Shown here: in pieces, positions 14,240 through 47,075 of the stretch
Layout: every line of letters begins with the position of its first letter
Numbering within the stretch: position 1 is the stretch's first letter
Assembly (NCBI RefSeq): GCF_000718985.1
Contig: NZ_JODL01000001.1
Coordinates: 62,001-126,000 of the forward strand
Length of the DNA stretch: 64,000 nucleotides
Direction of reading: 5' to 3'
Source: Streptomyces megasporus
GTDB taxonomy: Bacteria > Actinomycetota > Actinomycetes > Streptomycetales > Streptomycetaceae
Made by a program: the position numbers and the translations under genes
Notes under the pieces: generated by a model
The model's input: only the letters and a program-made list of their open reading frames with translations
What the model was told of the DNA's origin: nothing
The model's database searches: none

Positions 14240-15028
14240 ATGAGCATCTGGAACGGCGTGACGATCCGGCTTCTCGGTCCCGTGACCCTTGCACGAGACG
14301 GTGCGCCGATACCCGTGCCGGGGCAGCGCCAGCGGCGTTTCCTGGCCTCGCTGGCCCTGCGGCCCGGGCAGGTCATCTCCAAGGAGGTGCTCAGCGAGGA
14401 CTCCTGGGACGGCGAGCCGCCCCTGACCGTGTCGGGGCAGTTGCAGACCTCGGCCTGGATGATCCGGAAGGCCCTGGTGGAGGCAGGCCTCCCCCGGGAG
14501 ACCCTCGGCTCGCACGACCGGGGCTACGAGCTGCGGGTACCGCCCCGGTCCATCGACCTGTTCGTGTTCCGGGAGACCGTCCGCGAAGCCCGTGACCTGC
14601 ACGCCTGTGGGGAGCACGGGGGGGCGTCCGACCGGCTCGACAGCGCGCTGGCCCTGTGGAGGGGACCCGCCTTCGTCGACATCACCTCCAGCCGGCTGCG
14701 GCTCAAGGCCGAGTCCCTGGAAGCGGAACGGACGGCCGCGGTCGAGCTGCGCGCCCGGATCGACATCGACCTCGGGCGCTACGACGAGGCCATCTCCCGG
14801 CTGTCGGAACTGGTCGACGACGACCCCTTCCGCGAGGACCTCTACGTCAGCCTCATGAAGGCCTATTACGCGGAGGGCCGGCAGGTCGACGCGATCCAGG
14901 TCTTCCACCGGGCGAAGCGGATCCTGCGCGAGCACATCGGGATCGACCCGGGGGCGCGGATGATGAAGGTGATGCAGGCGATCCTGCACCAGGACGAAAA
15001 GTTACTCGGCGTGAGAACCCCGGCATAG
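14240..15028 (+). CDS. ccaR: SARP-family pathway activator (CcaR type)
   Basis: A 262-residue transcriptional activator. It has an N-terminal OmpR-like winged helix (residues about 8-95, ending RGYELRVPP) and a bacterial transcriptional activation domain (about 100-250, with SRLSELVDDDPFREDLY). Length and position match CcaR, the SARP activator of the cephamycin cluster in S. clavuligerus (256 residues, known from the literature). The ATG has GAGAGGG 7 bases upstream. A TTA leucine codon at residue 255 (15002-15004) makes it a likely bldA target. Its expected operators are the two heptad arrays at 15175 and 30053. The symbol is given by cluster context and domain type rather than measured identity. 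Confidence 0.88.
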   Translation: MSIWNGVTIRLLGPVTLARDGAPIPVPGQRQRRFLASLALRPGQVISKEVLSEDSWDGEPPLTVSGQLQTSAWMIRKALVEAGLPRETLGSHDRGYELRVPPRSIDLFVFRETVREARDLHACGEHGGASDRLDSALALWRGPAFVDITSSRLRLKAESLEAERTAAVELRARIDIDLGRYDEAISRLSELVDDDPFREDLYVSLMKAYYAEGRQVDAIQVFHRAKRILREHIGIDPGARMMKVMQAILHQDEKLLGVRTPA

Positions 15029-15174
15029 AGAACCGGGGCGGGAGAACCAGGACGAGAAGAGCGGCCGACAGCGCGCCGGCCCGGGCCGGAGCATTGCCCC
15101 TGTGCATGCTCCGGCCCTTTCCCTTTCCCGGATTAATTACCGGCGACCTTCTCCAGGACTTACCGGGTTTTTAC

Positions 15175-15229
15175 GGAGAGACCTCCGAGAGAGTCGCAAG
15201 AGGGGGCCAAGAGCAGTGCGGGCTAGCAT
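15175..15229 (+). promoter_or_regulatory. SARP operator and promoter of the cmcI unit
   Basis: Four direct heptads with an AGAG core lie exactly 11 bp apart: AGAG at 15177, 15188, 15199 and 15210 (e.g. CGAGAGA, CAAGAGG, CAAGAGC). The last heptad ends 9 bp before a -10 hexamer TAGCAT (15224-15229). SARP proteins are known to bind such helically phased heptads close to the -10. The same array precedes lat. A transcript would start near 15235, so the cmcI start codon must lie downstream of that point. Confidence 0.82.
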
Positions 15230-15269
15230 TGCGGTGTCGAAATGCGGCGCAAACTCATGGGAGAGCGCA

Positions 15270-15983
15270 TTGAACGACTACTCTCGCGAGAAATTCCTGG
15301 ACCTGAACGCTTTCCGGGGGCTGGGCGAGGATCCGGTCTACCGTCCCCCCGTACTGAAGGACCGCCCGCGGGACTGGCCACTCGACCGGTGGGCGGAAGC
15401 GCCGCGCGATCTGGGCTACTCCGATTTCTCCCGCTATCAGTGGAGAGGGCTGCGTCTGCTCAAGGACCCGGAGGCGCAGGCCGCCCTGCACGACCTGCTG
15501 TGGGAATTCCGTCCCCGCACCGTCATCGAACTGGGTGTGTACAGCGGCGGTTCCCTGGTCTGGTTCCGCGACCTGACCCGGCTCATGGGCATCGACTGCC
15601 AGGTCATCGGGATCGACAAGGACCTGTCCCGCTGCCAGATCCCGCCCTCCGAGTTGTCGAACATCGCTCTCCACGAAGCCGACTGCACCGATCTCGGAAC
15701 GCTGGAGAAACTCCTCGGCGACGCCGCCCACCCGCTGGTGTTCATCGACGACGCGCACAGCGACACGTTCAACGTCATGCGGTGGGCCGTCGACCACCTG
15801 CTCCACGAGGGCGACTACTTCATCATCGAGGACATGATCCCCTACTGGCACCGGTACAGCCCGACCCTGCTGGAGGAGTACCTGGCGTCCTTCCGCGACG
15901 TGCTGACCATGGACATGGTGTACGCCAACGCCGGCCCGCAACTGGACCGCGGTGTCTTCCGCCGCTCGGCCGTGAAGGGCTAG
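15270..15983 (+). CDS. cmcI: Cephalosporin 7-alpha-methoxylation methyltransferase CmcI
   Basis: A 237-residue SAM-dependent methyltransferase (CmcI family; 236 residues in S. clavuligerus). With CmcJ it installs the 7-alpha-methoxy group of cephamycins. The SAM motif is VIELGVYSGGS (residues 85-95). The metal-binding acidic residues known in the family fit D160 in FIDDAHS and E187-D188 in IIEDM. I chose the TTG at 15270 because GGGAGAG lies 3 bases upstream and because the promoter's start point (about 15235) rules out the earlier GTG codons at 15216 and 15234. It is the first gene of the SARP-box transcription unit. Confidence 0.92.
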   Translation: MNDYSREKFLDLNAFRGLGEDPVYRPPVLKDRPRDWPLDRWAEAPRDLGYSDFSRYQWRGLRLLKDPEAQAALHDLLWEFRPRTVIELGVYSGGSLVWFRDLTRLMGIDCQVIGIDKDLSRCQIPPSELSNIALHEADCTDLGTLEKLLGDAAHPLVFIDDAHSDTFNVMRWAVDHLLHEGDYFIIEDMIPYWHRYSPTLLEEYLASFRDVLTMDMVYANAGPQLDRGVFRRSAVKG

Positions 15984-15992
15984 GCCGCCGCC

Positions 15993-16865
15993 GTGTCCGC
16001 CGTATCGACCGTCCTGCACTACGCCGCACCGCTGACGCCGGACTCCCCGGACGACGACTGGTGCATCGACGCCCTGTCCCGGCCGCCCGAGGTGATCCTC
16101 AACTTCCGCATGGTCCCGTACGAGGCGACCGTCACGGACCTGCGCGACAGCACCGTGCGGCCCACCCTCGACACCATGGGGTTCGAGAAGGCCGAGGCCC
16201 CCGTGCGGGACGACCACCGCGCCCTGGCGGAGAACTCCGCGCCGGCCCTCGAACGCTACCGGCGGGAGATCGCGGAGCTGCTGACGTCCGTCACCGGGGC
16301 CGGCACGGTGGAGTTCTTCGACGCCACCCTGAGGCGCCAGGACGCCGCCCCCTCCGGCGCGACCCCCCACCAGGCGCCGCACCTGCGCGTCCACGTCGAC
16401 CAGAGTCCGAACAGCGCCCGCGCCCGCGCCGCCCTGCACGGCGGGGAGGGCCGTCGCTTCGACAGGTTCCAGATCGTCAACATCTGGCGGCCCCTGCTCG
16501 AACCCGTCCGCAACTACCACCTCGCCCTGTGCGACTACCGGTCGCTGGACCTCTCCGCCGACCTCGTGGCGACCCGGCTGGAGTTCCCGGAGTGGCTCAA
16601 GGACCGCGAGAGCTACTCCGTGAAGCACAACCCCCGCCACCGCTGGCACTACTGGCGGTCGCTCTCACCCGACGAGGTCCTCCTCTTCAAGTGCTACGAC
16701 AGCGCGAGCCGCGGGCTGGCGCTTGCCGCGGACGGCGTGGAACGCCCCGGGCTGGCCGACGTGGCCGGCCTCTGCCCGCACACGGCGTTCCACGACGAGA
16801 AGGGACCCGACACCGGGCATCTACGAACCTCACTGGAAATGCGCGCCGTACTTTTCTACGACTGA
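15993..16865 (+). CDS. cmcJ: Cephalosporin 7-alpha-hydroxylation partner CmcJ
   Basis: A 290-residue protein of the CmcJ/NvfI-like oxygenase family, which acts with CmcI in 7-alpha-hydroxylation and methoxylation of cephems. Family motifs visible are HVDQSPNSARAR (residues about 133-145), NIWRPLLEPVRNYHLALCD, and the C-terminal VLLFKCYDS and HTAFHDE stretches supplying likely iron ligands. It follows cmcI by 9 bp with a GTG start, so the two are translationally close, as expected of partners. It is slightly shorter than the S. clavuligerus protein. Confidence 0.92.
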   Translation: MSAVSTVLHYAAPLTPDSPDDDWCIDALSRPPEVILNFRMVPYEATVTDLRDSTVRPTLDTMGFEKAEAPVRDDHRALAENSAPALERYRREIAELLTSVTGAGTVEFFDATLRRQDAAPSGATPHQAPHLRVHVDQSPNSARARAALHGGEGRRFDRFQIVNIWRPLLEPVRNYHLALCDYRSLDLSADLVATRLEFPEWLKDRESYSVKHNPRHRWHYWRSLSPDEVLLFKCYDSASRGLALAADGVERPGLADVAGLCPHTAFHDEKGPDTGHLRTSLEMRAVLFYD

Positions 16866-17846
<981 letters not shown>

Positions 17847-17905: not shown

Positions 17906-18649
17906 ATGGAATACAGGTCCGACGCCGTCTTCGAGAAGCCTTCCATCTTCCGGGAAGGCGTGCGGGAATACGCGGAGCGCTCGTCCTCCCCGGTCTCGGC
18001 CGAGCTGCGGGAGCTGGAGGAGGAGACCGTCCGGCTCGCCCCCGAGTGGGCGGACATCGCCACCTCCCCCGTACAGGCGACCTTCCTGCAGATGCTGATA
18101 TCCGCCGCCGGCATGAACCGCGTGCTGGAGGTGGGCACCTTCACCGGACACGGCACCCTCGCCATGGCCGCGGCCCTGCCGGAGGACGGTGAGATCGTCA
18201 CCATCGACAGCTACGTCACCGACAAGCGGGCCCAGGAGATCGCCACCCGGGCCTTCTCCCGCAGCCCGCACGGCCACAAGGTCAAGCCCGTGCTGGACGA
18301 CGCGCTCTCCGGCCTCCAGCGCGTCGACGGCGACTTCGACCTCATCTTCCTGGACGCCGACAAACCCAACTACATCAAGTACTTCGAGAGCATCCTCGCC
18401 CGCGACCTCCTCCGCCCCCGCGGTCTCCTGGTGGTCGACAACACCATGTGGGGCGGTGAGGTCCTCGACCCGCGTGACCTGCCGCCCGCCGCGGAGGCGA
18501 GGACCGGCGAGGAGTGGGTGGAGCGCCTGTTCGCCAACTGGGCGCACGACGTGGTCAAGTTCAACCGGCACATGGCGGAGGACCCCCGCGTGCGCACGGC
18601 GCTGCTCACCGTCCACGACGGCATGACCCTCGTCCAGCTTGCGTCGTGA
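17906..18649 (+). CDS. Class I SAM-dependent O-methyltransferase, caffeoyl-CoA type
   Basis: A 247-residue cation-dependent O-methyltransferase (Methyltransf_3 family). The SAM motif is LEVGTFTGHG (74-83). The metal ligands of the plant caffeoyl-CoA enzymes are matched by D150 (FLDADKPNY) and D178-N179 (VVDNTMW). Family members methylate a hydroxyl next to a second oxygen that chelates the metal. No such gene belongs to the standard cephamycin C set. It is 59 bp after cefF and overlaps the acyl-CoA ligase by 4 bp. I infer that it makes the methoxy group of a 3'-acyl side chain, for example by acting on the enol of 4-hydroxyphenylpyruvate, whose enol and carboxylate could chelate the metal as a catechol does. 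Confidence 0.88.
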   Translation: MEYRSDAVFEKPSIFREGVREYAERSSSPVSAELRELEEETVRLAPEWADIATSPVQATFLQMLISAAGMNRVLEVGTFTGHGTLAMAAALPEDGEIVTIDSYVTDKRAQEIATRAFSRSPHGHKVKPVLDDALSGLQRVDGDFDLIFLDADKPNYIKYFESILARDLLRPRGLLVVDNTMWGGEVLDPRDLPPAAEARTGEEWVERLFANWAHDVVKFNRHMAEDPRVRTALLTVHDGMTLVQLAS

Positions 18650-20250
18650 CCGCGCAGGGTGGAATAGGGCTCTCCGTGGCGACCCTGCTGCGGCGCGCGG
18701 CCAGTGTGGCCCCCGGCAAGGAGATCCGCGAGGCGGATCCCGCCGGGCGACCCGTCGGCACGCCCTGGGCGGTCCTGCGGCAGCGTGCCCTGCGGCTGAC
18801 CAACGCCCTGGCCCGGTTGGGTATCGAACCGGGCGGCGCGGTCGCGACGTTCGCCTGGAACAGCACCCGGCACCTGGAGTGGTTCTTCGGCGTCCCGATG
18901 GCCAGCCACGTCCTCGTACCGGTCAACGTCCGGTTCTCCGACGAGCAGATCGCCTGGGTCGTGGCCCACGCCAACGCCCGCGTGATGGTGGTCGACGCCT
19001 CCCTCACCGGGCGACTGGCACGGCTGCTGCCCCGCCTCCGGAGCGTGCGCGAGTTCGTGGTGATGCCCGACGGCGGTGAGGTGCACCCCGCGTTCGCCGG
19101 CGCGCACCACTACGAGGAGCTGCTGGCCTCGGCCGAGCCCGACGAGCCGCGCGACGTCGCGGAGAACCGTACCGCGTGCCTGTGCTACACGGGCGGCACC
19201 ACGGGCAACCCGAAGGGCGTCGCGCACTCGCACCGCTCGATCGTCCTGCACTCCCTCGCGGTGTGCGCGGCCGATGCCTTCGCGATCCGCGAGCGGGACG
19301 TGATCCTCCCGCTGACCCCGCTGTTCCACGCCGCGGCCTGGGGCCTGCCCTACGCCGCCGCCATGGCCGGCGCGGGTCTGGTGTTCACCGGGCCGCACCT
19401 GAAGCCGGAGGCCATCGCGGCGACCCTGCGGCGGGAGCGGGTCACCTTCTCGGCCGGGGTGCCCACCTTCTGGCTCGCCCTGGACGAACTGGATCCTCCC
19501 GAAGAGGTGTTCGCCTCCCTGGAGCGGATCGTCTGCGGCGGCTCGGCCATCCCGTACGGCCTGGTGCGCCGGTACGCCGACCGCGGCGTGACCATGCAGC
19601 AGGGGCTCGGCATGACGGAGAACATGGCGCTGGTCGCCCTGACCACCGTCCGCGGCAGTCAGGAGTCCCTGCCGCCCGAGAAGCAGCTCGAACTGCACGA
19701 CACGCAGGGCCTGGCCGTGCCCGGCGTCGAGCTGCGGCTGGTGGGCGAGCGGGACGAGGTCCTGCCGCACGACGGGGTGACCCAGGGCGAGTTGGAGGTC
19801 CGGTCGTTCTGGGGGGCGACGCGCTACGAGAACCCCGGCGACGACACCAACACCAGGAAGTTCCACGACGGCTGGCTGCGCAGCGGCGACATCGCGTCCA
19901 TCGATCCGGACGGCTACGTGCGCATCACCGACCGCAGCAAGGACCTGATCAAGTCGGGCGGCGAGTGGATCAGCTCGATCACGGTCGAGTCCGCGCTCAT
20001 GGACCACCCCGACGTCCTGGAGGCGGCCGTCGTCGCCATGCCGGACGCCCGGTGGCAGGAGCGGCCGTTGGCGGTCGTGGTGGCCCGCCCCGGCGCCGGG
20101 GTCGCCCCGGAGGCGCTGCGGGCCTTCCTGAACGGCCGGCTGCCCAAGTGGTGGCTGCCGGACCGCTACGTGTTCGTGTCCGAGATCCCCAGGACGGCCA
20201 CGAACAAGTTCGACAAGAAGGTGCTGCGCAGCCGTTACGCCGGCCACTGA
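18646..20250 (+). CDS. AMP-forming acyl-CoA ligase
   Basis: A 534-residue member of the ANL adenylating superfamily that activates a carboxylic acid as its CoA thioester. Motifs: the ATP loop CYTGGTTGNPKG (about residue 180), GLGMTEN, GWLRSGDIASID, and the C-terminal hinge and lysine regions DRSKDLIKSGGEWIS and TATNKFDKKVLR. The KSGGEWIS form is typical of medium-chain and aromatic acid CoA ligases. There is no carrier-protein domain. The GTG start at 18646 overlaps the methyltransferase stop in GTGA, implying coupled translation. In context it probably activates the acid moved to the cephem by the next gene product. The substrate cannot be read from sequence alone. Confidence 0.9.
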   Translation: MTAQGGIGLSVATLLRRAASVAPGKEIREADPAGRPVGTPWAVLRQRALRLTNALARLGIEPGGAVATFAWNSTRHLEWFFGVPMASHVLVPVNVRFSDEQIAWVVAHANARVMVVDASLTGRLARLLPRLRSVREFVVMPDGGEVHPAFAGAHHYEELLASAEPDEPRDVAENRTACLCYTGGTTGNPKGVAHSHRSIVLHSLAVCAADAFAIRERDVILPLTPLFHAAAWGLPYAAAMAGAGLVFTGPHLKPEAIAATLRRERVTFSAGVPTFWLALDELDPPEEVFASLERIVCGGSAIPYGLVRRYADRGVTMQQGLGMTENMALVALTTVRGSQESLPPEKQLELHDTQGLAVPGVELRLVGERDEVLPHDGVTQGELEVRSFWGATRYENPGDDTNTRKFHDGWLRSGDIASIDPDGYVRITDRSKDLIKSGGEWISSITVESALMDHPDVLEAAVVAMPDARWQERPLAVVVARPGAGVAPEALRAFLNGRLPKWWLPDRYVFVSEIPRTATNKFDKKVLRSRYAGH

Positions 20251-20308
20251 CAGCCAGACCGACGACCGGGCCGGCCGACCCGGACCCGGCCACGGAGGGA
20301 ACGCGGGC

Positions 20309-21430
20309 ATGCGACTGAACAACACCGGAGCGTGGCAACCCGGCGACGCTCCGGGAGGCCGACGCTTCGTCGAGACCCACCCGGCCGACGCACCCCTGCG
20401 ACTGGTCTCCGGACAGACCCTCGGACCGGTGACCATGTCGTACGAGAGCTGGGGCGCCCTCGACGCGGACCGGAGCAATGCGGTCCTGATCCTCCCGCCG
20501 CTGAGCATGACCAGCCACGCGGCGGGACCGGCCGGTCCCGGCCACCGTGCCGAGGGCTGGTGGAACTCCCTCATCGGACCGGGCAGGGCCGTCGACACGG
20601 ACCGCTTCCACGTCGTGGTCGCCAACAACCTCGGCGGCTGCGACGGGAGCACCGGCCCCGCGAGTCTCGACGCCCGTGGCAGACCCTGGGCGTCCCGGTT
20701 CCCCGCGCTCGACGTGGTGGACCAGGTCGAGGCCGAGGCCGCGCTCGCCGACGCGCTGGGCATCGAGCGCTGGCACACCGTCATCGGCATGTCCATCGGC
20801 GGCGCCCGCGCCCTGGAGTGGGCCGTCTCCCGCCCCCACCGGGTGGGCCGGCTCCTCCTGATCGCCGTGGCGGCGGCCACCCGGGTCGAGCAGGCCGGCC
20901 ACACGCACGTCGAACTGGAGCTGATCCGGCGGGACCCGCACTTCCACGGGGGCGATTTCTACCACCTCCCCGAGGGGTGCGGGCCCCGCACCGGCGTCTC
21001 CCTCGCCCGCAGCTTCGCCCACATGCGCTACGGCACGGAGCGCTACTGGCAGGAGCGGTTCGGCGGGCAGGCCTGGTACCACGATCCGGGCGTCTGCCAC
21101 GCCAAGTTCCGCGAGTACGTCCTCGCACAGGGCGACAAGGTGTGGGAGCGCTTCGACGCCAACGCGTACCTCGTGCTCTCGGAGACCGCCCTCAACGCCA
21201 CGGTCGCCCGGGGCAGGGGCGGCATCGGCGAGGCGCTCGCCCGGATCACCTGCCCCACCCGCGTCCTCGGATTCTCCACCGACCGCGCGTACCCTCCCGA
21301 AACCCAGCGGGAGCTGGCGGCCGGCATCCGCGGCGCCCGGGTGGACATCGTGGACACCGACCTCGGGCACTACGGCTTCATCCTCGCGCCCGAACTGATC
21401 GAGCCGCACCTGCGCCTGGCTCTCGCATAG
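20309..21430 (+). CDS. MetX/CefG-type acyltransferase (cephem 3'-O-acyltransferase, predicted)
   Basis: A 373-residue alpha/beta-hydrolase-fold protein of the homoserine O-acetyltransferase family. The catalytic triad is visible: S162 in the elbow GMSIGG, D325 (FSTDRAYPP) and H354 (LGHYGF). The family signature NNLGGCDGSTGPAS is at 106-119. The fungal enzyme CefG, which acetylates deacetylcephalosporin C, belongs to this family. Lying in the cefF operon, with no methionine genes nearby, it most likely acylates the 3'-hydroxyl made by CefF. The acyl donor is probably supplied by the upstream ligase, although acetyl-CoA is possible. The ATG has GGAGGG upstream. Confidence 0.88.
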   Translation: MRLNNTGAWQPGDAPGGRRFVETHPADAPLRLVSGQTLGPVTMSYESWGALDADRSNAVLILPPLSMTSHAAGPAGPGHRAEGWWNSLIGPGRAVDTDRFHVVVANNLGGCDGSTGPASLDARGRPWASRFPALDVVDQVEAEAALADALGIERWHTVIGMSIGGARALEWAVSRPHRVGRLLLIAVAAATRVEQAGHTHVELELIRRDPHFHGGDFYHLPEGCGPRTGVSLARSFAHMRYGTERYWQERFGGQAWYHDPGVCHAKFREYVLAQGDKVWERFDANAYLVLSETALNATVARGRGGIGEALARITCPTRVLGFSTDRAYPPETQRELAAGIRGARVDIVDTDLGHYGFILAPELIEPHLRLALA

Positions 21431-21439
21431 GGGGGACCG

Positions 21440-22876
21440 GTGCTCGCCGTACTGCTCGTGGGCGCCTTCATGCCCACCCTGGACTTCTTCATCGTCAACG
21501 TCGCCGTCCCGTCCATCACCGAGGACCTGCACGCGAGCAGCGGCGAGACCGAGCTCGTCGTGGCCGTGTACGCCATCGTCTACGCGTCCCTGCTGGTGCT
21601 CGGCGGGCGGCTGGGCGACCACTGGGGCCGCGAGAGGACGTTCGTGGTGGGCCTCGCCCTCTTCACGGCGACGTCCGCGATGTGCGGCTTCGCTCCCGAC
21701 GTCTGGTGGCTGATCTGCGGCCGGGCCCTCCAGGGCGGCGCGTCCGTGGTGCTGTTCCCGCAGGTGCTCGCCCTCATCCGGATCCACTACCCGCCGGCGG
21801 AACGCCCCCGCGTCATGCGCGTCTACGGCCTTGCCACGGGCAGTGCCATGGCCCTCGGCCAACTCCTCGGCGGACTGCTGATCAGCCTGGACTGGCTGGG
21901 CCTCTCCTGGCGCTGGGCCTTCCTCGTCAACCTGCCCGTGGGAGCGGTCACGCTGGTCCTCGCCCCGCTGCTGCTGCCGGCGACGGGTCGGCGGGCCGGC
22001 CGCCTGAGCTTCGACCGCACCGGAGTCGTGCTGTTCGCCGGCGCCATGGTGCTCCTGGTGCTACCCCTGACGGTCGGCCGCTCGGCCGGCTGGCCGGGGT
22101 GGACCCTCCTCATGCTCGCGGGCGCCGCCGCGGCGCTGCCGGGCTTCTGGCTCTGGGAACGCCGCACCGAGTCCCTGGGACGCGACCCGCTCCTGCCGCC
22201 CGGTCTGCTGCGCGTGCGCGCCCTGCGCACCGGGCTGCTGACCGTCGCCTCCTTCTACGCCTCCCTGTCGTCGTTCCTGTACGTGCTGGCCCTCCTCCTC
22301 CAGAACGGGCAGGGCCTCACCCCCCTTCAGGCGGGCCTGGTGTCCAGCCCGCTGGCCCTCGGCTTCTGCGTGGCCAGCATGTCCTCCGCGTACCTGACGA
22401 ACCGCTGGGGCACCCGCCCGCTGAAAGCCGCGATGGGGGTCCAGATCGCCGGCTACGCGGGCCAGTTCCTGCTGCTGCCCGACGGGGCCGCGGCCGTGAA
22501 CATCCCCGCGCTGGCGGCGCTGCTCGCCGTCAACGGGGTCTGCACCGGGGTCGTGATGGCTCCGCTGCTGGGTCTCGTCCTCGACAAGGTGGATTCCGCG
22601 CGGGCGGGTGCCGCCAGCGGTCTCCTGGCCACGACCCAGCAGGTCGCCGGCGCCGTCGGGCTCTCCGTCATCGGCATCGTGTTCCACGGCGCCGGGCGGA
22701 ACACGGCGCTCGCCCCCGCCCGGATCGCCGACGGCTACCGACACGGCCTGCTGTACCTGGTCCTGACCTCCGCCGCGACCCTGGCCGGGCTGTTCCTGCT
22801 GACCCGCGTACGGGACGCCACCCGGCCCGCCGGCGCGCCGGACGGCGATGCCCGGCGCGTGTCCTCCCGGAACTGA
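21440..22876 (+). CDS. cmcT: MFS drug exporter, CmcT-like
   Basis: A 478-residue DHA2-type (14-helix) major facilitator. The first helix begins right at the GTG start, with the family motif LDFFIVNVAVPSI in TM1 and GGRLGDHWGRER in the TM2-TM3 loop. CmcT is the cephamycin transporter gene of known clusters, and this gene has the same place. It follows the acyltransferase by 9 bp with GGGGGA as ribosome-binding site, so it ends the SARP-controlled unit. The likely role is export of the finished cephem. Confidence 0.88.
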   Translation: MLAVLLVGAFMPTLDFFIVNVAVPSITEDLHASSGETELVVAVYAIVYASLLVLGGRLGDHWGRERTFVVGLALFTATSAMCGFAPDVWWLICGRALQGGASVVLFPQVLALIRIHYPPAERPRVMRVYGLATGSAMALGQLLGGLLISLDWLGLSWRWAFLVNLPVGAVTLVLAPLLLPATGRRAGRLSFDRTGVVLFAGAMVLLVLPLTVGRSAGWPGWTLLMLAGAAAALPGFWLWERRTESLGRDPLLPPGLLRVRALRTGLLTVASFYASLSSFLYVLALLLQNGQGLTPLQAGLVSSPLALGFCVASMSSAYLTNRWGTRPLKAAMGVQIAGYAGQFLLLPDGAAAVNIPALAALLAVNGVCTGVVMAPLLGLVLDKVDSARAGAASGLLATTQQVAGAVGLSVIGIVFHGAGRNTALAPARIADGYRHGLLYLVLTSAATLAGLFLLTRVRDATRPAGAPDGDARRVSSRN

Positions 22877-23072
22877 GGTCCCGCCTCCCCGGACATGTCT
22901 TCCCTGGCCATCCCATCGTGTGAACGGTTCCCGCGTGGTTGCGCGACTCGTCACACGAAAGGACGGCCCGAGTTGGACTCCGCCGGCCGGAGCGCGTAAA
23001 ACGGGGGCGACCCCGTCCACGCACCGGCCACGGCAGGGCCGACTCGGCTTTTCCGAAAGCAGGTACACCCGC

Positions 23073-24011
23073 ATGTCCCTCAAGCAGTCCGGCCTGCCCC
23101 GCCGCGCCTTCCTCACCGCGGCGGCCCTACTGCCCCTGACCGGCTGCGGCGGTACGCAGGACCGCTCGGTCACCCTGGGATCCCACGCGTCGGCACGGCC
23201 CTCCGCCTCTCCCTCCGCCTCCGCGACCCTGCTGGACGCCGCTCCGCTCCGCGCGCTCGAGCGCAAGCACGATGCCCGGCTCGGCGTGTACGCCCTGGCC
23301 ACCGGTACGGGGAAGGCGATCGCCCACCGGGCAGACGAACGCTTCGCGTTCTGCTCCACGTTCAAGACCCTCGCCGTCGCCGCCGTCCTCCACCGCAATC
23401 CGCTCAGCCACCTGGACGAGCACGTCACCTACACCTGGGACGACATCAAGTCCATCTCCCCCATCACCAGGCAGAACGTCGCCAAGGGCATGACGGTGGG
23501 CCAACTGTGCGACGCCGCCATCCGCCACAGCGACGGCACGGCCGCCAACCTGCTGCTGCGCGACCTCGGCGGCCCGGAGCGGCTGACCGCCTACCTGCGG
23601 AAGCTCGGCGACACCGTCAGCCGCCTCGACCGCTACGAGCCCGAGCTGCACCAGGCCCGCCCCGGAGACCCGCGCGACACCACCTCGCCCCGGGCGATCG
23701 CCGCCGATTACCGCACGGTCGTCCTGGGTGACGCGCTCGCCGCCGACAAGCGCGCCCTCCTCACCGACCTCCTCGTCCGCAACACCACCGGCGGCAACCG
23801 CATCCGGGCCGGGCTCCCCAAGGGCTGGCGGGTCGCCGACAAGACCGGAACCGGCAACTACGGCCGGGCCAACGACATCGCCGTCGTGTGGCCGCCGCGC
23901 TCCGCCCCCCTCGTGATGGCCATCATGTCCGAGCGCTCCGAACAGGAGGACCGCCCCAGCGAGGCCCTGATCGCCGAAGCCGCCGAGCACATCGCCGCCG
24001 CGCTGACCTGA
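23073..24011 (+). CDS. bla: Class A beta-lactamase, secreted lipoprotein
   Basis: A 312-residue serine beta-lactamase. The N-terminus has paired arginines (RR at 10-11), a hydrophobic core and lipobox LTGC with Cys25. A Ser/Ala/Pro linker then leads to the enzyme domain. Motifs: S95TFK98, S153DG155 in place of SDN, E189 as the general base (Ambler 166), and K257TG259. The residue equivalent to Asn170 is His193. Class A enzymes with SDG occur in Streptomyces. Beta-lactamase genes are regular members of cephamycin clusters. Activity on 7-alpha-methoxycephems would be expected to be poor, so its role may be protection against pathway intermediates. Confidence 0.93.
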   Translation: MSLKQSGLPRRAFLTAAALLPLTGCGGTQDRSVTLGSHASARPSASPSASATLLDAAPLRALERKHDARLGVYALATGTGKAIAHRADERFAFCSTFKTLAVAAVLHRNPLSHLDEHVTYTWDDIKSISPITRQNVAKGMTVGQLCDAAIRHSDGTAANLLLRDLGGPERLTAYLRKLGDTVSRLDRYEPELHQARPGDPRDTTSPRAIAADYRTVVLGDALAADKRALLTDLLVRNTTGGNRIRAGLPKGWRVADKTGTGNYGRANDIAVVWPPRSAPLVMAIMSERSEQEDRPSEALIAEAAEHIAAALT

Positions 24012-24035: not shown

Positions 24036-25928
24036 TCACCCGATCCGGGTCAGCCTCTCCCGGAAGGACGGCTCCCGCAGCTCCGACCGCAGCGCCACCG
24101 GCACGCGCCGCTCCTTCGCGCCGCCCAGCACCAGCTCACCGACCACGGTCCCGGCCTTCGCCCCGGCGGCAACGGTCCTGCCCCCGTCCCGGAACGAGAG
24201 CGCCAGCTTCTGCCCCGGCACCCCGACCACCTTCAAATCCCGCGTGGCGACCAGCGGTACGCGGCCGCCCAGACCGTCGTCGACGTGTCCGACGACCTGG
24301 CCCTTCCGCACCGCCGTCGCCGAGGTGAGCGCCTCCCGGACCGCCTTGACGACCTTCTTGCTGTTGTCCTGCACCAGCAGGAGACTGTTCGAACCGTTGG
24401 GATCCGGTCCCGTGACGTGCTGGTCCAGCATCGTGCCCAGGATCAGCCGCTCCTCGCCGTCCACGGTCTTGTACGCCGCCCAGGACAGCGTGCCGCCCGC
24501 GGGGGTGTTGGAACCGGTCTTGATGCCCCTGATGCTCAGCCCGGCCAGGATCAGCCGGTCGTTGTTGTTGATGATGCGCCCGACCCCGGGGATGTCGGCG
24601 TTGGGCATGGCGACGATCGCGCGGAAGGTGTCGAACCTCATGACCGCCTCGGCCAGCTTGAGCTGGTCGACGGCTGTGCTGACGGTCCCCTTGTCCAGGC
24701 CGCTGGGGTCGGTGTACGTGGTGTTCTTCATGCCGAGCGACCTGGCCGCCTCGTTCATCTTCCGGACGAACTCGGTCTCGTCCCGGGTCCCCGTGTTCCA
24801 CCGGGCCAGCAGCCGGGCCACGTTGTTGCCCGACGGGATCATCAGCATCTTCAGCATGTCCTGGAGGCTGAACGTCTGGCCGACCCGCAGTCCCTCGATG
24901 CGCGACTCGTGCACGGCCTTGCCCTCCCCCACGGCCCGGGCGTCGACCGTGACCCGCGGGCCCGGCTCGTCCCTCCCGATCGGGTGCTCGCGCAGGATCA
25001 CGTAGGCCGTCATGATCTTGGCGACGCTCGCCGTCGGAACGGGTTTCTGCTCCCCGAACGTCCCTATGGTGCCCGAACCCACGACCTTGACCGCGGCCTG
25101 TCCCTTCTCGGGCCACGGCATGGTGAACGTGCCGCCGCCGACGGTGAAGGACGACGCACCCGGGTCGAGGACGAGGGTCGGCCCGGGCAGCGGACGGAGC
25201 AGTTGGGCGGCGAGGACGGCCGGCACGAGGAGCGCCACGAGAAGCGTCCATATCCTGGCCCTGCGGAGGAACGTGCGGGCCGGGGTGCGCGGTGGCGGCG
25301 GGGTGTTCGTGAGGTGCGCGAGCAGGTCGAGCGGGGAGGCGGCGGGCTGCGCGTCGCGCACGTCCTGCGCGGTGGCCGGGATGGCGGGCGGCTCGGCGCG
25401 CGGCATGTCGGCGACCTCGATCGCCACCGTCTCAGCGGCTGCGGCCGCGCCCTCCGGAACCCGTAACGCGACCGTCCGGGTGTTCTCGGAGGGCTCCGCC
25501 TCGGCGGGCTTCGCGGTCTCGGCGGCCTCGGCGGCCTCTCCGGGCTCGTCCCCGGCAGCCGCCGCGGCACTCCCGTCCGGCGCCGTGCCACCGGCCTCGC
25601 CGGCGGCGGCCTCGGCCTTCTCCGGCGGCTCATCGGCGGCGTCCTCGGTCTTCCCGGCGGTGTCCTCGGCCGCCGGAGCCGGGGCTTCCTCCACAGCGGC
25701 GTCCGCATCCCCCTCGTCCGCCTCTCCCGACGGCTCGCCGGCGGCCTCCGGCTTCTCCGGCTTCTCCGCCGACTTCTCCGGCTCGTCCGCCGACTTCTTC
25801 GGCTCCGGGTCCGGCTTCCCCGTGCGCTCCTCGGTCACGGCTGGGCCCGGGGCACGCTCTGTGTCCAGGGGCTCCACCGGCGCGTCGTCCCGGTCGAGGG
25901 TGCCGGTGTCGAGTGTTCGGTCCGCCAT
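24036..25928 (-). CDS. D-alanyl-D-alanine carboxypeptidase with long acidic N-terminal tail
   Basis: A 630-residue low-molecular-weight PBP (peptidase S11). Residues 1 to about 210 are a disordered Glu/Ala/Pro/Lys-rich cytoplasmic tail. A single membrane segment follows (about 223-242, WTLLVALLVPAVLAAQLL), then the outer catalytic domain with PTASVAKIM (SxxK), PSGNNVARLL (SGN) and GIKTGSNTPAG (KTG). It trims the terminal D-Ala from pentapeptides. The ATG at 25928 has AAGGAGA upstream. It converges on bla with only 24 bp between stops. It may help beta-lactam tolerance by binding drug, but it could also be a housekeeping gene caught in the cluster. Confidence 0.9.
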   Translation of the reverse strand: MADRTLDTGTLDRDDAPVEPLDTERAPGPAVTEERTGKPDPEPKKSADEPEKSAEKPEKPEAAGEPSGEADEGDADAAVEEAPAPAAEDTAGKTEDAADEPPEKAEAAAGEAGGTAPDGSAAAAAGDEPGEAAEAAETAKPAEAEPSENTRTVALRVPEGAAAAAETVAIEVADMPRAEPPAIPATAQDVRDAQPAASPLDLLAHLTNTPPPPRTPARTFLRRARIWTLLVALLVPAVLAAQLLRPLPGPTLVLDPGASSFTVGGGTFTMPWPEKGQAAVKVVGSGTIGTFGEQKPVPTASVAKIMTAYVILREHPIGRDEPGPRVTVDARAVGEGKAVHESRIEGLRVGQTFSLQDMLKMLMIPSGNNVARLLARWNTGTRDETEFVRKMNEAARSLGMKNTTYTDPSGLDKGTVSTAVDQLKLAEAVMRFDTFRAIVAMPNADIPGVGRIINNNDRLILAGLSIRGIKTGSNTPAGGTLSWAAYKTVDGEERLILGTMLDQHVTGPDPNGSNSLLLVQDNSKKVVKAVREALTSATAVRKGQVVGHVDDGLGGRVPLVATRDLKVVGVPGQKLALSFRDGGRTVAAGAKAGTVVGELVLGGAKERRVPVALRSELREPSFRERLTRIG

Positions 25929-26144
25929 CGCTTTCTCCTTCGTGCGCCCACGGCACACGTGTCCTGCCGGGCAGGCACGTCACGCGTCCTGGCGCAAGGG
26001 CTGGTGGTTCTCGCCGGGCGATCCGCGGCCTTCCGAGGGCCCGTCGGTGATCGCCACGCGGCGGCGCGGCCAGCGTATCCGATCACTGTTCGGGAACCGC
26101 GGCGGCAACCGTGGGCGGACGGCTGGAAACAGCCGGGGAACCGG

Positions 26145-26193: not shown

Positions 26194-27732
26194 CTACCGG
26201 GAGAAGTTCACGCCTTGGGCGAGCGTCACCCGCCCGGAGTAGTTCACCGTGTTCGTCGCGCGGCGCATGTAGGCCCGCCATGCGTCGGAACCGGACTCGC
26301 GTCCGCCGCCCGTCTCCTTCTCACCGCCGAACGCACCTCCGATCTCCGCGCCCGACGTGCCGATGTTGACGTTGACGATGCCGCAGTCCGCGCCGTCGGC
26401 GGCCAGGAACCGCTCGGCCTCCCGCTGGTCGTTGGTGAAGATCCCGGACGACAGTCCCTGCGGTACGTCGTTGTGCAGCCGGATCGCCTCGTCGAGGTCC
26501 CGGTAGGTCAGGACGTACAGGAGGGGTGCGAAGGTCTCCTCGCGCACCACATCGGTCTGGGCCGGCATCCGGACGATGGCCGGCCGGACGTAGTACGCGT
26601 CCGGGGCCGCCTCGGCGAGTTGCCGCTCGCCGCCGGCGACGAGGGTTCCGCCGTCCGCGGCGGCCCGGTCCAGGGCGGCCTGCATCCTGGTGTGGGACGC
26701 CTGGTTCACGAGCGGTCCCACCAAGGTGGTGTCCCGGAACGGGTCGCCGATCGGCAGTCGGCCGTACGCCCGGACGAGCCGTTCGACGACGGTGTCGGCG
26801 ACGTCCTCGTGCACGATCAGCCGGCGGAGCGTGGTGCACCGCTGGCCCGCCGTGCCCGCGGCGGCGAACACGGCGGCGTTGACGGTGAGGTCGAGGTCCG
26901 CCGACGGGGTGACCACGGCGGCGTTGTTCCCTCCGAGCTCCAGCAGGGCGCGGCCGAACCGGGCGGCCACCCGGGGTCCCACCGTCCGGCCCATCCGGGT
27001 CGATCCGGTCGCGCTGACCAGCGGCACGCGCGGGGAGTCGACCAGCCGCTCGCCGGCCTCCGCCGCACCGAGGAGGACCTGGTTGAGGTGGGCCGGGGCG
27101 CCGGTCTCCGCGGCGGCGCGGTCGAGGAGGGCGGTGCAGGCCAGCGCGGTCAGCGGCGTCAGCTCGGACGGCTTCCACACCACGGTGTCGCCGCACACCA
27201 GGGCCACCGCGGTGTTCCACGCCCACACCGCGACCGGAAAGTTGAAGGCGGTGATCACACCGACCACGCCCAGCGGGTGCCAGGTCTCCATCAGCCGGTG
27301 GCCCGGGCGTTCGGAGGGCATGGTGCGGCCGTAGAGCTGCCGGGACAGGCCCACCGCGAAGTCGCAGATGTCGACCATCTCCTGGACTTCGCCGAGCGCC
27401 TCGGAGCGGATCTTGCCGGCCTCGACGGTGACCAGGTCGGCCAACTGCTCCCGGTGCTCGGCCAGCAGCTCGCCGAGCCGCTTGACGAGCGCGCCGCGCA
27501 CTGGCGCCGGGGTCGTCCGCCAGGTGAGGAACGCCGTGTGCGCGGCCTCGACCGCCCGGTCCGCATCGGCGGGGGTGTCGGCGCGCAGGCCGAACAGTCC
27601 GGCCCCGGTGATCGGTGTACGCGCGGTGAGGGTGTCGCCCTTGAACGCGGCGAGTTCGACCCCGCAGCCCGCCAGGGCCGCCTCCGCCCTGGCGCGTACG
27701 TCGTCGGTACTGCTGACTGCTGCTGTAACCAC
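26194..27732 (-). CDS. pcd: Piperideine-6-carboxylate dehydrogenase
   Basis: A 512-residue NAD-dependent aldehyde dehydrogenase that oxidises the product of Lat (alpha-aminoadipate semialdehyde / piperideine-6-carboxylate) to L-alpha-aminoadipate, the first building block of the ACV tripeptide. Catalytic residues are C299 (AGQRCTTLRRL) and E266 (LELGGNN). The nucleotide-binding stretch VITAFNFPVAVWAWN is present. The GTG start at 27732 follows the cefE stop by 21 bp, so it is co-transcribed with cefD and cefE. Confidence 0.94.
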   Translation of the reverse strand: MVTAAVSSTDDVRARAEAALAGCGVELAAFKGDTLTARTPITGAGLFGLRADTPADADRAVEAAHTAFLTWRTTPAPVRGALVKRLGELLAEHREQLADLVTVEAGKIRSEALGEVQEMVDICDFAVGLSRQLYGRTMPSERPGHRLMETWHPLGVVGVITAFNFPVAVWAWNTAVALVCGDTVVWKPSELTPLTALACTALLDRAAAETGAPAHLNQVLLGAAEAGERLVDSPRVPLVSATGSTRMGRTVGPRVAARFGRALLELGGNNAAVVTPSADLDLTVNAAVFAAAGTAGQRCTTLRRLIVHEDVADTVVERLVRAYGRLPIGDPFRDTTLVGPLVNQASHTRMQAALDRAAADGGTLVAGGERQLAEAAPDAYYVRPAIVRMPAQTDVVREETFAPLLYVLTYRDLDEAIRLHNDVPQGLSSGIFTNDQREAERFLAADGADCGIVNVNIGTSGAEIGGAFGGEKETGGGRESGSDAWRAYMRRATNTVNYSGRVTLAQGVNFSR

Positions 27733-27753: not shown

Positions 27754-29921
<2,168 letters not shown>

Positions 29922-30052
29922 GTCGTGATCTCCCACGGAATTCAGAAAAGAAAAGGAGGTCCGCGGCCCACCGGAATTCGGTCGACGGGAAACACCGTAT
30001 CAGTTGCACCGGATCCCGAACAGAGTGTTTTCCGCCGGATCCCCGAGAAGGC

Positions 30053-30197: not shown

Positions 30198-31565
30198 ATG
30201 GACGAGCAAGTGCGTCGCCCTGACAGCGGCCCTTCGGAGACGGCACGTCTGACCGCCCGGGACGTGCACCGCGTCCTGGAGCACCACGTCCTGGTGGACG
30301 GCTACGGCATCGTTCTGGATCTGTCGGCCAGCAGCGGATCCCGGCTTGTCGACGCCATCACCGGAAACGAATACCTCGACCTCTTCTCCTTCTTCGCCTC
30401 GGCGCCGCTCGGTATCAATCCCTCCTGTATCACCGACGATCCGGAGTTCCTGCGGGAACTCACCGCGGCGGCCGTGAACAAGCCCTCGAACCCCGATGTC
30501 TACACGATTCCCTACGCCCGGTTCGTCAAGACGTTCGCCCGTGTGCTCGGCGATCCGCTGCTGCCCCACCTGTTCTTCGTGGACGGCGGAGCACTGGCCG
30601 TCGAGAACGCCCTCAAGGCGGCCTTCGACTGGAAGGCGCAGAAGCTCGGTCTCGACGAGGACGCCGTCGACGGCCTCACGGCGCTGCACCTGGAGCGGTC
30701 GTTCCACGGCCGCAGCGGCTACACCATGTCGCTGACCAACACCGAGCCGTCCAAGACGGCCCGCTTCCCCAAGTTCCGCTGGCCCCGCATCCCCTCGCCG
30801 GCCCTGCGCCACCCGCTCGCCGAGCACGCCCGTGCCAACCAGGAGGCCGAACGGCGGGCCCTGGAGGCCGCCGAAGCGGCCTTCCGCGCCGCCGGCGGGA
30901 TGATCGCCTGCTTCATCGCCGAACCGATCCAGGGCGAGGGCGGCGACAACCACCTGAGTGCCGACTTCCTCCAGGCGATGCAGCGCCTCTGCCACGAGTA
31001 CGACGCCCTGTTCGTGCTCGACGAGGTGCAGAGCGGCTGCGGCATCACCGGCACCCCGTGGGCGTACCAGCAGCTCGACCTCCGGCCGGACCTCGTGGCG
31101 TTCGGCAAGAAGACCCAGGTGTGCGGCGTGATGGGCGGCGGCCGCATCGACGAGGTGCCGGACAACGTGTTCACCGTCTCGTCCCGGATCAGCTCGACCT
31201 GGGGCGGCAACCTCGCCGACATGGTCCGCGCCACCCGCATCCTGGAGACGATGGAGCGCACCCAGCTCCTCGACGCCGTCGTCCAGCGCGGCAAGTACCT
31301 GTGCGACGGCCTCCAGTCCCTGGCCGACGAGTACCCGACCCTCGTGAGCAACCCCCGCGGCCGCGGTCTGATGTGCGCCGTCGACCTGCCGGACGGCCCG
31401 TACCGCGACGGCGTCCTGCGGCGGATGTACGAGGAGCACCACGTCATCGCCCTCCCGTGCGGCGACCGCAGCCTCCGGTTCCGCCCGCCGCTGACGATCA
31501 CCGAGGGCGAGATCGACCGGGCGCTCGACGCGCTGGAGCGCGGCCTCCGGCCGGCCGGCCGCTGA
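30198..31565 (+). CDS. lat: L-lysine 6-aminotransferase
   Basis: A 455-residue class III PLP aminotransferase. It moves the epsilon-amino group of L-lysine to 2-oxoglutarate, the committed step toward alpha-aminoadipate in actinomycete beta-lactam producers. The PLP lysine is K304 in AFGKKTQVCG, and the cofactor Asp lies in FVLDEVQSG. RSFHGRSGYTMSLT and STWGGNLADMVR are typical of lysine aminotransferases. The ATG has ACAGGAG upstream. It is the first gene of the lat-pcbAB-pcbC unit. Confidence 0.96.
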   Translation: MDEQVRRPDSGPSETARLTARDVHRVLEHHVLVDGYGIVLDLSASSGSRLVDAITGNEYLDLFSFFASAPLGINPSCITDDPEFLRELTAAAVNKPSNPDVYTIPYARFVKTFARVLGDPLLPHLFFVDGGALAVENALKAAFDWKAQKLGLDEDAVDGLTALHLERSFHGRSGYTMSLTNTEPSKTARFPKFRWPRIPSPALRHPLAEHARANQEAERRALEAAEAAFRAAGGMIACFIAEPIQGEGGDNHLSADFLQAMQRLCHEYDALFVLDEVQSGCGITGTPWAYQQLDLRPDLVAFGKKTQVCGVMGGGRIDEVPDNVFTVSSRISSTWGGNLADMVRATRILETMERTQLLDAVVQRGKYLCDGLQSLADEYPTLVSNPRGRGLMCAVDLPDGPYRDGVLRRMYEEHHVIALPCGDRSLRFRPPLTITEGEIDRALDALERGLRPAGR

Positions 31566-43986: not shown

Positions 43987-44166
43987 GTTCGCGGGACGGC
44001 GCCGGGCCCGGAACCCCGGGGAGGGCGACCGTCCCGGTCCGGGGCCCGCGCTCCGCCCCGGACCGGGACGGAGTCGAGAGTTCCGATTCATACGCTGGCC
44101 GCCGCGGCGCCGGAAGGCCCCCGATTCCGGCGCCGTTCCGTGTCACAACAAGCGGAAGGCGTGGAC

Positions 44167-46605: not shown

Positions 46606-46616
46606 CACGGCCTTTC

Positions 46617-47075
46617 ATGAAAGAAGCAGCACTCCTGACCGCCGTGGCCGTCCTGGTCCTGTGGCTGGTATGGAGCATCGTCAGTGTCCGCCGCCTCGTC
46701 AGAGGATTGACCGACCGGTCCTGGCAGCGCCCCCTGTGGTGGCTGCGGGCCGGTTCGGTCTCCTCCTTCGTCGCAGTCGCGGCCTGGTTGAGAGGAGCCT
46801 TCTCCGGCGGTCTCAGCATCAGCGACACCTGCCGGTACACCCACCACGAGCCCTACGACGACGCCTACTGGGAGGAGCACCGGCACGAGTTCCGGCGGCT
46901 CTTCCCCCTCCACAACAAGTGCAACGAGCACTTCGACCTGGTCCCCGCATGGGTCAACCCGACCATCGTGGCCTGCGCCGTCATCACGGTGGTCTGCGCC
47001 GCCGTGCTGGCAGGGTTCGGCATCGCATCTCTGGCAACCAAGGCACGAAAGGAAACCGGCCATGACCCCGGCTGA
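46617..47075 (+). CDS. Small membrane protein of unknown function
   Basis: A 152-residue protein with three predicted membrane segments (about 5-24, 45-60 and 113-135). Between the second and third is an acidic/His/Tyr-rich loop (TCRYTHHEPYDDAYWEEHRHEF) with cysteines at about residues 72 and 101. I recognise no family. It starts 11 bp after the DUF1906 gene and its end overlaps the next gene by 14 bp, so the three are co-expressed. It could be a membrane partner for the flanking cell-wall proteins. Confidence 0.72.
   Translation: MKEAALLTAVAVLVLWLVWSIVSVRRLVRGLTDRSWQRPLWWLRAGSVSSFVAVAAWLRGAFSGGLSISDTCRYTHHEPYDDAYWEEHRHEFRRLFPLHNKCNEHFDLVPAWVNPTIVACAVITVVCAAVLAGFGIASLATKARKETGHDPG

What the first reader, a model, noticed from the sequence alone, without database searches (positions are those of the whole stretch)
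17906..21430. O-methyltransferase, acyl-CoA ligase and MetX-fold acyltransferase replace the carbamoyltransferase in a cephamycin cluster
Seen: three genes in tight succession (59 bp gap, then a 4-bp GTGA overlap, then 58 bp) inside the cefF transcription unit, with no carbamoyltransferase (cmcH) anywhere in the window. Known: cephamycins A and B carry an alpha-methoxy-cinnamoyl ester at C-3' in place of the carbamate. Inference: the methyltransferase forms an alpha-methoxy (p-hydroxy)cinnamate from the enol of a phenylpyruvate, the ligase makes its CoA ester, and the acyltransferase puts it on deacetylcephalosporin or its 7-methoxy form. No sulfotransferase is present, so a cephamycin-B-like product is more likely than A. 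This would be a genetic basis for the aromatic-ester cephamycins.
Basis: partly seen in the sequence, partly recalled or inferred. Interest (0 to 1): 0.93.

Follow-up and report, generated by a model that had tools for sequence, protein, structure and literature searches.

The report
Aromatic-ester cassette in cephamycin cluster
A Streptomyces cephamycin (beta-lactam antibiotic) gene cluster carries, exactly where related clusters have the carbamoyltransferase gene, a three-gene cassette that is predicted to make an aromatic, alpha-methoxycinnamate-type acid and attach it to the antibiotic, which would give cephamycins A and B a genetic basis.

Summary
OMT (17906-18649), acyl-CoA ligase (18646-20250) and a MetX-fold acyltransferase (20309-21430) follow cmcI-cmcJ-cefF in a cephamycin cluster; the window has no cmcH. 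The genome's one PF16861 protein lies on another contig and matches a paralogue that a cmcH-bearing genome carries beside its CmcH. Of nine IPNS-positive loci compared, six have cefF, and directly after it stands either cmcH (3) or the whole trio (3), never both. The trio keeps its order and 4-bp OMT/ligase overlap in its three clusters. Sister clusters add tailoring enzymes that suit a phenol: a sulfotransferase in Streptomyces sp. cf386 (cephamycin A-like) and a halogenase-like flavoprotein in G060; the window has neither nearby (cephamycin B-like). The acyltransferase belongs to a 16-member clade (100/100 support) with an intact triad; the tunnel Asp beside the catalytic His, present in 104 of 104 listed MetX-like relatives, is Tyr in 16 of 16. 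The genome's only PF00221 lyase is HutH, so a 4-hydroxyphenylpyruvate route is likelier than p-coumarate. Chemistry is untested: alpha-methoxy position, ligase substrate and product are inferred. Cephamycins A/B are known compounds (recalled); my paper searches (listings and passages, open-licence PMC) showed no gene assignment.

The parts
17906..18649 (+). OMT: class I metal-dependent O-methyltransferase of the caffeoyl-CoA/catechol OMT family (PF01596); inferred alpha-(enol) O-methyltransferase for the side-chain acid
   Evidence: Asp150, Lys153, Asp178 in 21 of 21 and Asn179 in 20 of 21 rows of A1 (roles recalled from the family)
18646..20250 (+). Acyl-CoA ligase (PF00501+PF13193), GTG start overlapping the OMT stop; inferred to activate the methoxycinnamic acid
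20309..21430 (+). MetX-fold O-acyltransferase; triad Ser162-Asp325-His354; inferred cephem C-3' cinnamoyltransferase
16887..17846 (+). cefF: deacetoxycephalosporin C hydroxylase (makes the C-3' hydroxyl)
   Evidence: 62% identical to cefE of the same window and 76-88% to cefF of five other clusters; function from established pathway
15993..16865 (+). cmcJ: 7-alpha-hydroxylation partner
   Evidence: NF041278, 275 bits, cut-off 80
15102..15983 (+). cmcI: 7-alpha O-methylation partner
   Evidence: 69-84% to the gene in the cmcI place of five other clusters; name from knowledge of the pathway
14240..15028 (+). SARP regulator, ccaR-like
   Evidence: SARP models, below cut-off; relatives at 70-75% in five other IPNS regions: G005 and G274, G429, G060 and G699
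21440..22876 (+). MFS exporter, cmcT-position; 9 bp after the acyltransferase
22848..24011 (+). class A beta-lactamase (true start probably internal)
   Evidence: NF033103, 327 bits, cut-off 200
24036..25958 (-). D-Ala-D-Ala carboxypeptidase-like PBP
   Evidence: below the cut-offs
26194..27732 (-). pcd: piperideine-6-carboxylate dehydrogenase
   Evidence: NF050084, 811 bits, cut-off 730
27754..28695 (-). cefE: deacetoxycephalosporin C synthase
28689..29936 (-). cefD: isopenicillin N epimerase
30198..31565 (+). lat: lysine 6-aminotransferase
   Evidence: TIGR03251, 649 bits, cut-off 520.8
31685..42901 (+). pcbAB: ACV synthetase
   Evidence: similar long ORF beside IPNS in the other clusters
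42945..43934 (+). pcbC: isopenicillin N synthase
   Evidence: 75-80% to seven other genomes; name from knowledge of the pathway

Best explanation
In this Streptomyces cephamycin cluster an O-methyltransferase, an acyl-CoA ligase and a MetX-fold acyltransferase stand in the place of the carbamoyltransferase gene cmcH and likely make an alpha-methoxy-(p-hydroxy)cinnamoyl-CoA and transfer it to the C-3' hydroxyl that CefF is expected to create, giving a predicted cephamycin-B-like ester. Steps: (1) inferred: the OMT methylates the enol oxygen of 4-hydroxyphenylpyruvate, whose carboxylate and enolate oxygens could chelate the metal as a catechol does; (2) inferred: the ligase makes the CoA thioester (methylation before or after activation is undecided); (3) inferred: the acyltransferase loads the acyl group on Ser162 and passes it to deacetylcephalosporin C or its 7-methoxy form. 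Shown: position, order, replacement of cmcH, intact catalytic residues, purifying selection, tailoring genes that suit a phenol in two sister clusters. In cf386 the sulfotransferase would turn the B-like into an A-like product; in G060 the halogenase-like enzyme would halogenate the phenol ring.
For: Six of six cefF-bearing loci among nine examined carry either cmcH (G005, G429, G652) or the trio (window, G060, G699=cf386) directly after cefF, never both. The genome's only PF16861 protein is a non-CmcH paralogue. Trio order and 4-bp overlap are conserved in three of three. OMT and acyltransferase hits share a contig of identical length in 7 cluster representatives, four of them also with the same strain name (one of the seven, 7,680,776 bases, is G060). 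Sulfotransferase PF17784 (225 bits, cut-off 22.8) lies between pcbC and cmcI in cf386; G060 has a flavoprotein with GxGxxG, WxWxI and FxxPxxSxG motifs and halogenases as best solved relatives on the same strand after the acyltransferase. Acyltransferase: model pLDDT 91.5, best folds MetX (TMq 0.89) and deacetylcephalosporin C acetyltransferase (TMq 0.85, TMt up to 0.92); clade-specific Tyr355, Met67, Met161 (16 of 16 each). No PF00221 lyase in the genome but HutH.
Against: No biochemical or mass-spectrometric data. The OMT family usually methylates ring catechols (recalled). The ligase scores best against fatty-acyl and 3-methylthiopropionyl ligase models; I did not resolve its pocket. An OMT homologue at 66% occurs in a S. 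clavuligerus record, so the OMT is not exclusive to trio clusters. Fungal CefG, which uses the same acceptor, keeps the Asp that is Tyr here, so that change does not prove a cephem acceptor; it may reflect the donor. The sulfotransferase also has relatives (78-79%) in S. sulfonofaciens and S. cacaoi, whose context I did not see. The G060 flavoprotein reaches no NCBIfam cut-off (CmlS 181 against 900; monooxygenase QhpG 117 against 240), so it could be a monooxygenase.
Confidence: 0.74

Rival explanations
1. The cassette makes a different aromatic ester: the OMT acts as an ordinary caffeoyl-CoA/catechol O-methyltransferase and the side chain is ring-methoxylated (feruloyl-type).
For: Family membership PF01596, best solved relatives include caffeoyl-CoA OMTs.
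Against: Needs p-coumarate/caffeate; the genome has no PF00221 ammonia-lyase but HutH, and no ring hydroxylase showed among the window proteins I scanned (28 protein entries, three of them the trio scanned twice; about 43 ORFs were predicted). The halogenase-like enzyme and sulfotransferase in sisters need a free phenol, which a feruloyl group would still offer, so they do not decide.
Confidence: 0.12
2. The acyltransferase is a bacterial CefG: it acetylates C-3' from acetyl-CoA (3'-acetoxy-7-methoxycephalosporin), and OMT and ligase serve something else.
For: Same fold as CefG and same likely acceptor; triad intact.
Against: OMT and ligase are coupled by a 4-bp overlap and co-conserved in 3 of 3 clusters with dN/dS 0.26-0.36; acetyl-CoA needs no ligase. 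The acyltransferase is nearer MetX than CefG in the fold list (39% against 29% identity) and carries clade-specific active-site changes that CefG lacks.
Confidence: 0.08
3. The acyltransferase is a true homoserine O-acetyltransferase (methionine supply) that happens to sit in the cluster.
For: Scores just over one NCBIfam MetX cut-off (338 against 331); public records name the relatives homoserine O-acetyltransferase.
Against: Separate clade with 100/100 support; tunnel Asp replaced by Tyr in 16 of 16; of nine genomes searched five have no match at E 1e-20 at all, so such an enzyme seems dispensable for methionine there (inference).
Confidence: 0.03
4. The product is a cephamycin C after all, carbamoylated by the C13 carbamoyltransferase.
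For: The genome does hold one PF02543/PF16861 protein.
Against: It is 76-78% identical to a paralogue in G060 and in G005, and G005 has CmcH as well; it lies beside glycosyltransferase- and epimerase-like genes.
Confidence: 0.03

Closest known systems
Cephamycin C clusters (here G005, G429, G652; S. clavuligerus, S. cattleya, A. lactamdurans recalled)
   Same: ACVS, IPNS, pcd, cefD, cefE, cefF, cmcI, cmcJ; cmcI-cmcJ-cefF order; lat, SARP and PBP genes in those where they were seen
   Different: cmcH directly after cefF is replaced by OMT-ligase-acyltransferase
Cephamycins A and B of Streptomyces griseus and relatives (compounds, recalled: alpha-methoxy-p-sulfooxy/p-hydroxycinnamoyl esters at C-3')
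   Same: Predicted enzyme set matches the chemistry; cf386 adds a sulfotransferase
   Different: Known as compounds; no gene assignment seen in the listings (open-licence PMC only) or in the passages
Fungal deacetylcephalosporin C acetyltransferase CefG (PDB 2VAT, 2VAV, 2VAX)
   Same: MetX-like alpha/beta-hydrolase acyltransferase fold, cephem C-3' hydroxyl as likely acceptor
   Different: 29% identity; CefG keeps the Asp after the catalytic His and an LTSS loop, here Tyr and LSMT; donor inferred aromatic, not acetyl
MetX homoserine O-acetyltransferase
   Same: Fold (TMq 0.89), triad, Arg and Tyr of the tunnel
   Different: Asp351-equivalent is Tyr, HALTGD loop is PPLSMT, GGSMGG is GMSIGG
Caffeoyl-CoA O-methyltransferase (PDB 1SUI, 8GXN)
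   Same: Family, metal-ligand and Lys positions
   Different: Substrate inferred to be an arylpyruvate enol

Membership tests
Cephamycin biosynthetic cluster | ACVS, IPNS, LAT/Pcd, CefD, CefE, CefF genes together | tested here: met
Cephamycin biosynthetic cluster | 7-alpha-methoxylation pair cmcI-cmcJ | tested here: met
Cephamycin C cluster | cmcH 3-hydroxymethylcephem carbamoyltransferase | tested here: not met
   no cmcH in the window; only a non-CmcH paralogue in the genome
Cephamycin A/B pathway | genes for an aromatic acyl-CoA and its O-transfer in the cluster | tested here: inconclusive
   ligase, OMT and O-acyltransferase present by family; that the acyl group is aromatic is inferred
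Cephamycin A/B pathway | alpha-methoxycinnamoyl ester in the product | not testable with these tools
   needs LC-MS/NMR
Cephamycin A pathway | phenol sulfotransferase | tested here: not met
   no homologue of the cf386 sulfotransferase in G000 at E 1e-5; other sulfotransferase families were not searched genome-wide
MetX homoserine acetyltransferase | Ser-Asp-His triad | tested here: met
   Ser162, Asp325, His354 in 16 of 16
MetX homoserine acetyltransferase | tunnel residues Thr61, Arg227, Tyr234, Asp351 (PMC6937278, passages seen) | tested here: not met
   Thr/Ser, Arg and Tyr kept; Asp351 position Tyr in 16 of 16 against Asp in 104 of 104 listed others
CefG | cephem C-3' hydroxyl acceptor, acetyl-CoA donor | not testable with these tools
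   needs enzyme assay
Metal-dependent CCoAOMT family | PF01596 domain with metal ligands Asp, Asp, Asn and Lys | tested here: met
   residue roles recalled

The most novel reading that the evidence does not exclude
A family of aryl-ester cephamycin clusters in Streptomyces swaps the carbamoyl arm of cephamycin C for a cassette-made alpha-methoxycinnamoyl arm, using a caffeoyl-CoA-type methyltransferase turned arylpyruvate-enol O-methyltransferase and a homoserine-acetyltransferase relative turned cephem cinnamoyltransferase, and diversifies that arm by sulfation (cf386, cephamycin A) or halogenation (G060, a halogenated cephamycin not known to me).
Probability: 0.6. Interest if true: 0.85.

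Novelty: new variant of a known kind. Interest (0 to 1): 0.76.

Why it matters
Cephamycins A and B have been known as compounds for decades (recalled), yet I saw no genes for their aromatic arm in the listings and passages of the papers I could search. If right, three named genes make that question directly testable by knockouts and assays, give an enzyme that acylates the cephem C-3' hydroxyl with bulky acids (of use for semi-synthesis of cephalosporins), and predict new natural variants, including a halogenated one.

Tried and rejected
Housekeeping MetX, CefG-type acetylation and carbamoylation by the C13 paralogue were considered and ranked low (see rivals). I first read Asp-to-Tyr in the acyltransferase as an acceptor switch from homoserine to cephem; one search showed that CefG, with the same acceptor, keeps Asp, so I dropped that reading. 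Ligase specificity from sequence gave no clear answer. The regular expression for a MetX motif in G429 returned nothing and was not used. In one search I printed G652 only from base 15000 on and so first missed its cmcI-cmcJ-cefF-cmcH block; (whole fetched regions) corrected this. The 'relatives' search added no trio genome; its genomes overlap those. P0016 (an MFS-annotated protein in the acyltransferase hit list) was dropped before the counts; one search used 59 of the 121 sequences. The hit list is itself capped: 120 listed of 3283 proteins at E 1e-60 or better. The N terminus of the G060 flavoprotein was cut off because it crosses a fetch boundary; read it whole. The genome-contig scan gave 40 loci, of which one (cf386) has the trio; the tool may leave out records near the window's genome. 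Reading of two reviews for cmcH led nowhere.
Full report
Observation. The window lies at C1:62001-126000 of an assembly of 5.85 Mb in 195 contigs, 99.19% complete. The cluster runs PBP genes, SARP regulator, cmcI, cmcJ, cefF, OMT, ligase, acyltransferase, MFS, beta-lactamase, carboxypeptidase, pcd, cefE, cefD, lat, ACVS, IPNS.

Is cmcH missing? PF02543 and PF16861 match one gene in the genome, on contig C13, beside rfaE-like, glycosyltransferase- and epimerase-like genes (names from my reading of the sequences). It is 77.9% identical to the single PF16861 protein of G060 and 75.7% to one of three in G005, while G005's CmcH is only 33% (363 aligned residues) and G429's 39% (275 residues) identical to it. 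The single PF16861 protein of G699 is 27-28% identical to CmcH. So none of the three trio genomes has a CmcH orthologue that I could find; the window's assembly is not closed, so a gap cannot be wholly excluded.

Positional replacement. IPNS was sought in 394 family genomes (5 hits) and 392 genus genomes (4 hits); G000 is in both, so there are eight genomes, plus cf386 (G699) reached through the OMT scan. I took regions of 56 to 100 kb around IPNS in all nine and ran tblastn at E 1e-10. cefF with cmcH directly after it: G005, G429, G652. cefF with OMT-ligase-acyltransferase directly after it: window, G060, G699. No cefF or cefE match and neither cmcH nor trio in the fetched region: G274, G337, G457. 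That is 6 of 6 cefF-bearing loci with exactly one of the two. The trio is rare: acyltransferase at E 1e-120 in 2 of 394 genomes and at 1e-110 in 1 of 395; OMT at 1e-60 in 2 of 392, the second a 55% relative beside other genes. Those draws overlap in part.

Sister clusters tell about the acyl group. In cf386 a PF17784 sulfotransferase (225 bits, cut-off 22.8) lies between IPNS and cmcI; an 89% relative is on a 315,385-base contig of Streptomyces sp. NPDC006923, whose length and strain equal those of an 81% OMT relative. In G060 the acyltransferase is followed on the same strand by a Na/H-exchanger-like gene, a flavoprotein gene and the SARP gene. The flavoprotein passes the PF04820 (Trp_halogenase) cut-off (77 bits against 21; FAD_binding_3 also passes, 49 against 22); its best solved relatives are halogenases (8ZOP, 3E1T, CmlS 3I3L, PltA 5DBJ, ChlB4 7FCO, RadH 8GU0), and it has GxGxxG, WxWxI and FxxPxxSxG motifs (that the last two mark halogenases is recalled). 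No NCBIfam cut-off is reached (best CmlS 181 against 900; the monooxygenase QhpG is next, 117 against 240), so halogenase is likely, not certain. Sulfation and ring halogenation (or hydroxylation) all suit a phenol. Two tailoring enzymes of different kinds on the same cassette are the best evidence that the acyl group is aromatic. Against over-reading: sulfotransferase relatives at 78-79% occur in S. sulfonofaciens and S. cacaoi, in contexts I did not see.

The acyltransferase. Fifteen database proteins at 57-89% identity form one clade with it, then identity drops to about 50% (120 listed of 3283; one 506-aa MFS-annotated hit set aside); the clade has 100/100 support against 43 MetX-like rows. 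The model (pLDDT 91.5, pTM 0.92) is closest to M. tuberculosis MetX (TMq 0.89) and also fits the deacetylcephalosporin C acetyltransferase entries (TMq 0.84-0.85). The triad is Ser162-Asp325-His354. A paper on mycobacterial MetX names Thr61, Arg227, Tyr234 and Asp351 as tunnel residues (PMC6937278, passages only). Mapped through the alignment (numbering checked) they are Ser66 (Ser 11, Thr 5 of 16), Arg234 (16 of 16), Tyr241 (16 of 16) and Tyr355 in place of Asp (16 of 16; Asp in 104 of 104 listed others). Other clade-specific changes: Gly to Met67 (16 of 16; Gly in 95 of 104) and Met161 (16 of 16; Gly in 103), Met to Ala294 (16 of 16), His to Ala297 and Asp to Thr298 (14 of 16 each). CefG keeps Asp and 'THD', so with the acceptor presumably the same, the changes may belong to the donor; this is an inference, and pocket contacts were not measured. 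Arg234 would hold the C-4 carboxylate: homoserine and a 3-hydroxymethylcephem are both gamma-hydroxy acids (inference).

The OMT and the precursor. The OMT is a PF01596 enzyme with the family's metal ligands and Lys (roles recalled). The genome's only PF00221 lyase is HutH (TIGR01225, 690.6 bits, cut-off 539); G060 also has one, G699 three, which I did not classify by model. So at least here a TAL-derived p-coumarate is unlikely, and 4-hydroxyphenylpyruvate, which already has the alpha oxygen, is the likelier precursor. OMT relatives at 51-55% stand beside NRPS-like genes in L007, L008 and L052 and one at 66% is in a S. clavuligerus record; so the OMT subfamily is wider than this cassette.

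The ligase is an intact adenylate-forming enzyme; its best models are fatty-acyl ligases and its best solved relative a long-chain fatty acyl-CoA synthetase. Its substrate is inferred from context only.

Selection: dN/dS (Nei-Gojobori, three genomes) is 0.27-0.36 for OMT, 0.26-0.29 for ligase, 0.18-0.19 for acyltransferase, against 0.27-0.30 for cefF. All three genes are kept.

Literature. The listings (0 papers; 1 paper; 3 papers; open-licence PMC papers; titles and starts of abstracts seen) showed no paper that assigns genes to the aromatic arm; I did not read those papers through. One review names cephamycins A, B and C as compounds modified at C-7 and C-3' (PMC9146315, passage seen). The structures of cephamycins A and B are recalled. 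Subscription journals were not searchable, so priority is not established.

Verdict. The chemistry awaits a bench test.

Noticed in passing
L006:6444-7136 (-), Streptomyces sp. cf386: PF17784 sulfotransferase between pcbC and cmcI inside a trio cluster; would make the product cephamycin A-like. Relatives at 78-79% in S. sulfonofaciens and S. cacaoi.
   Followed up: partly
G060 C1:3344943-3346244 (L048:19943-20000 with L049:1-1244): Flavin-dependent halogenase-like gene downstream of the acyltransferase on the same strand; suggests a halogenated (or hydroxylated) aryl cephamycin.
   Followed up: partly
L048:7651-11727; L074:5728-9807; L065:18771-20000 with L063:1-2856; L089:18604-20000 with L090:1-2605: A large (about 1333-1361 aa) uncharacterised protein, 53-89% identical among four IPNS-bearing regions (G060, G274, G337, G457); Pfam sees a GDSL lipase and a golvesin domain in the G060 copy.
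   Followed up: partly
44140-47730: Three genes after pcbC (Rv2525c-like glycoside hydrolase with peptidoglycan-binding domain, then two small proteins without Pfam match) are conserved next to pcbC in G652 too (68%, 42%, 65%).
   Followed up: no
L007, L008, L052: OMT subfamily members (51-55%) beside NRPS-like, P450-like, KAS III-like and E1-dehydrogenase-like genes (names from my reading): another pathway that may use arylpyruvate-enol or catechol O-methylation.
   Followed up: no
P0137 (S. clavuligerus, longest contig 6,900,908 bases): 66% OMT homologue in a species known for cephamycin C; its neighbours were not visible to me.
   Followed up: no
48038-49363: Protein with LAL_C2 domain (L-amino acid ligase C-terminal) near the cluster edge.
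   Followed up: no
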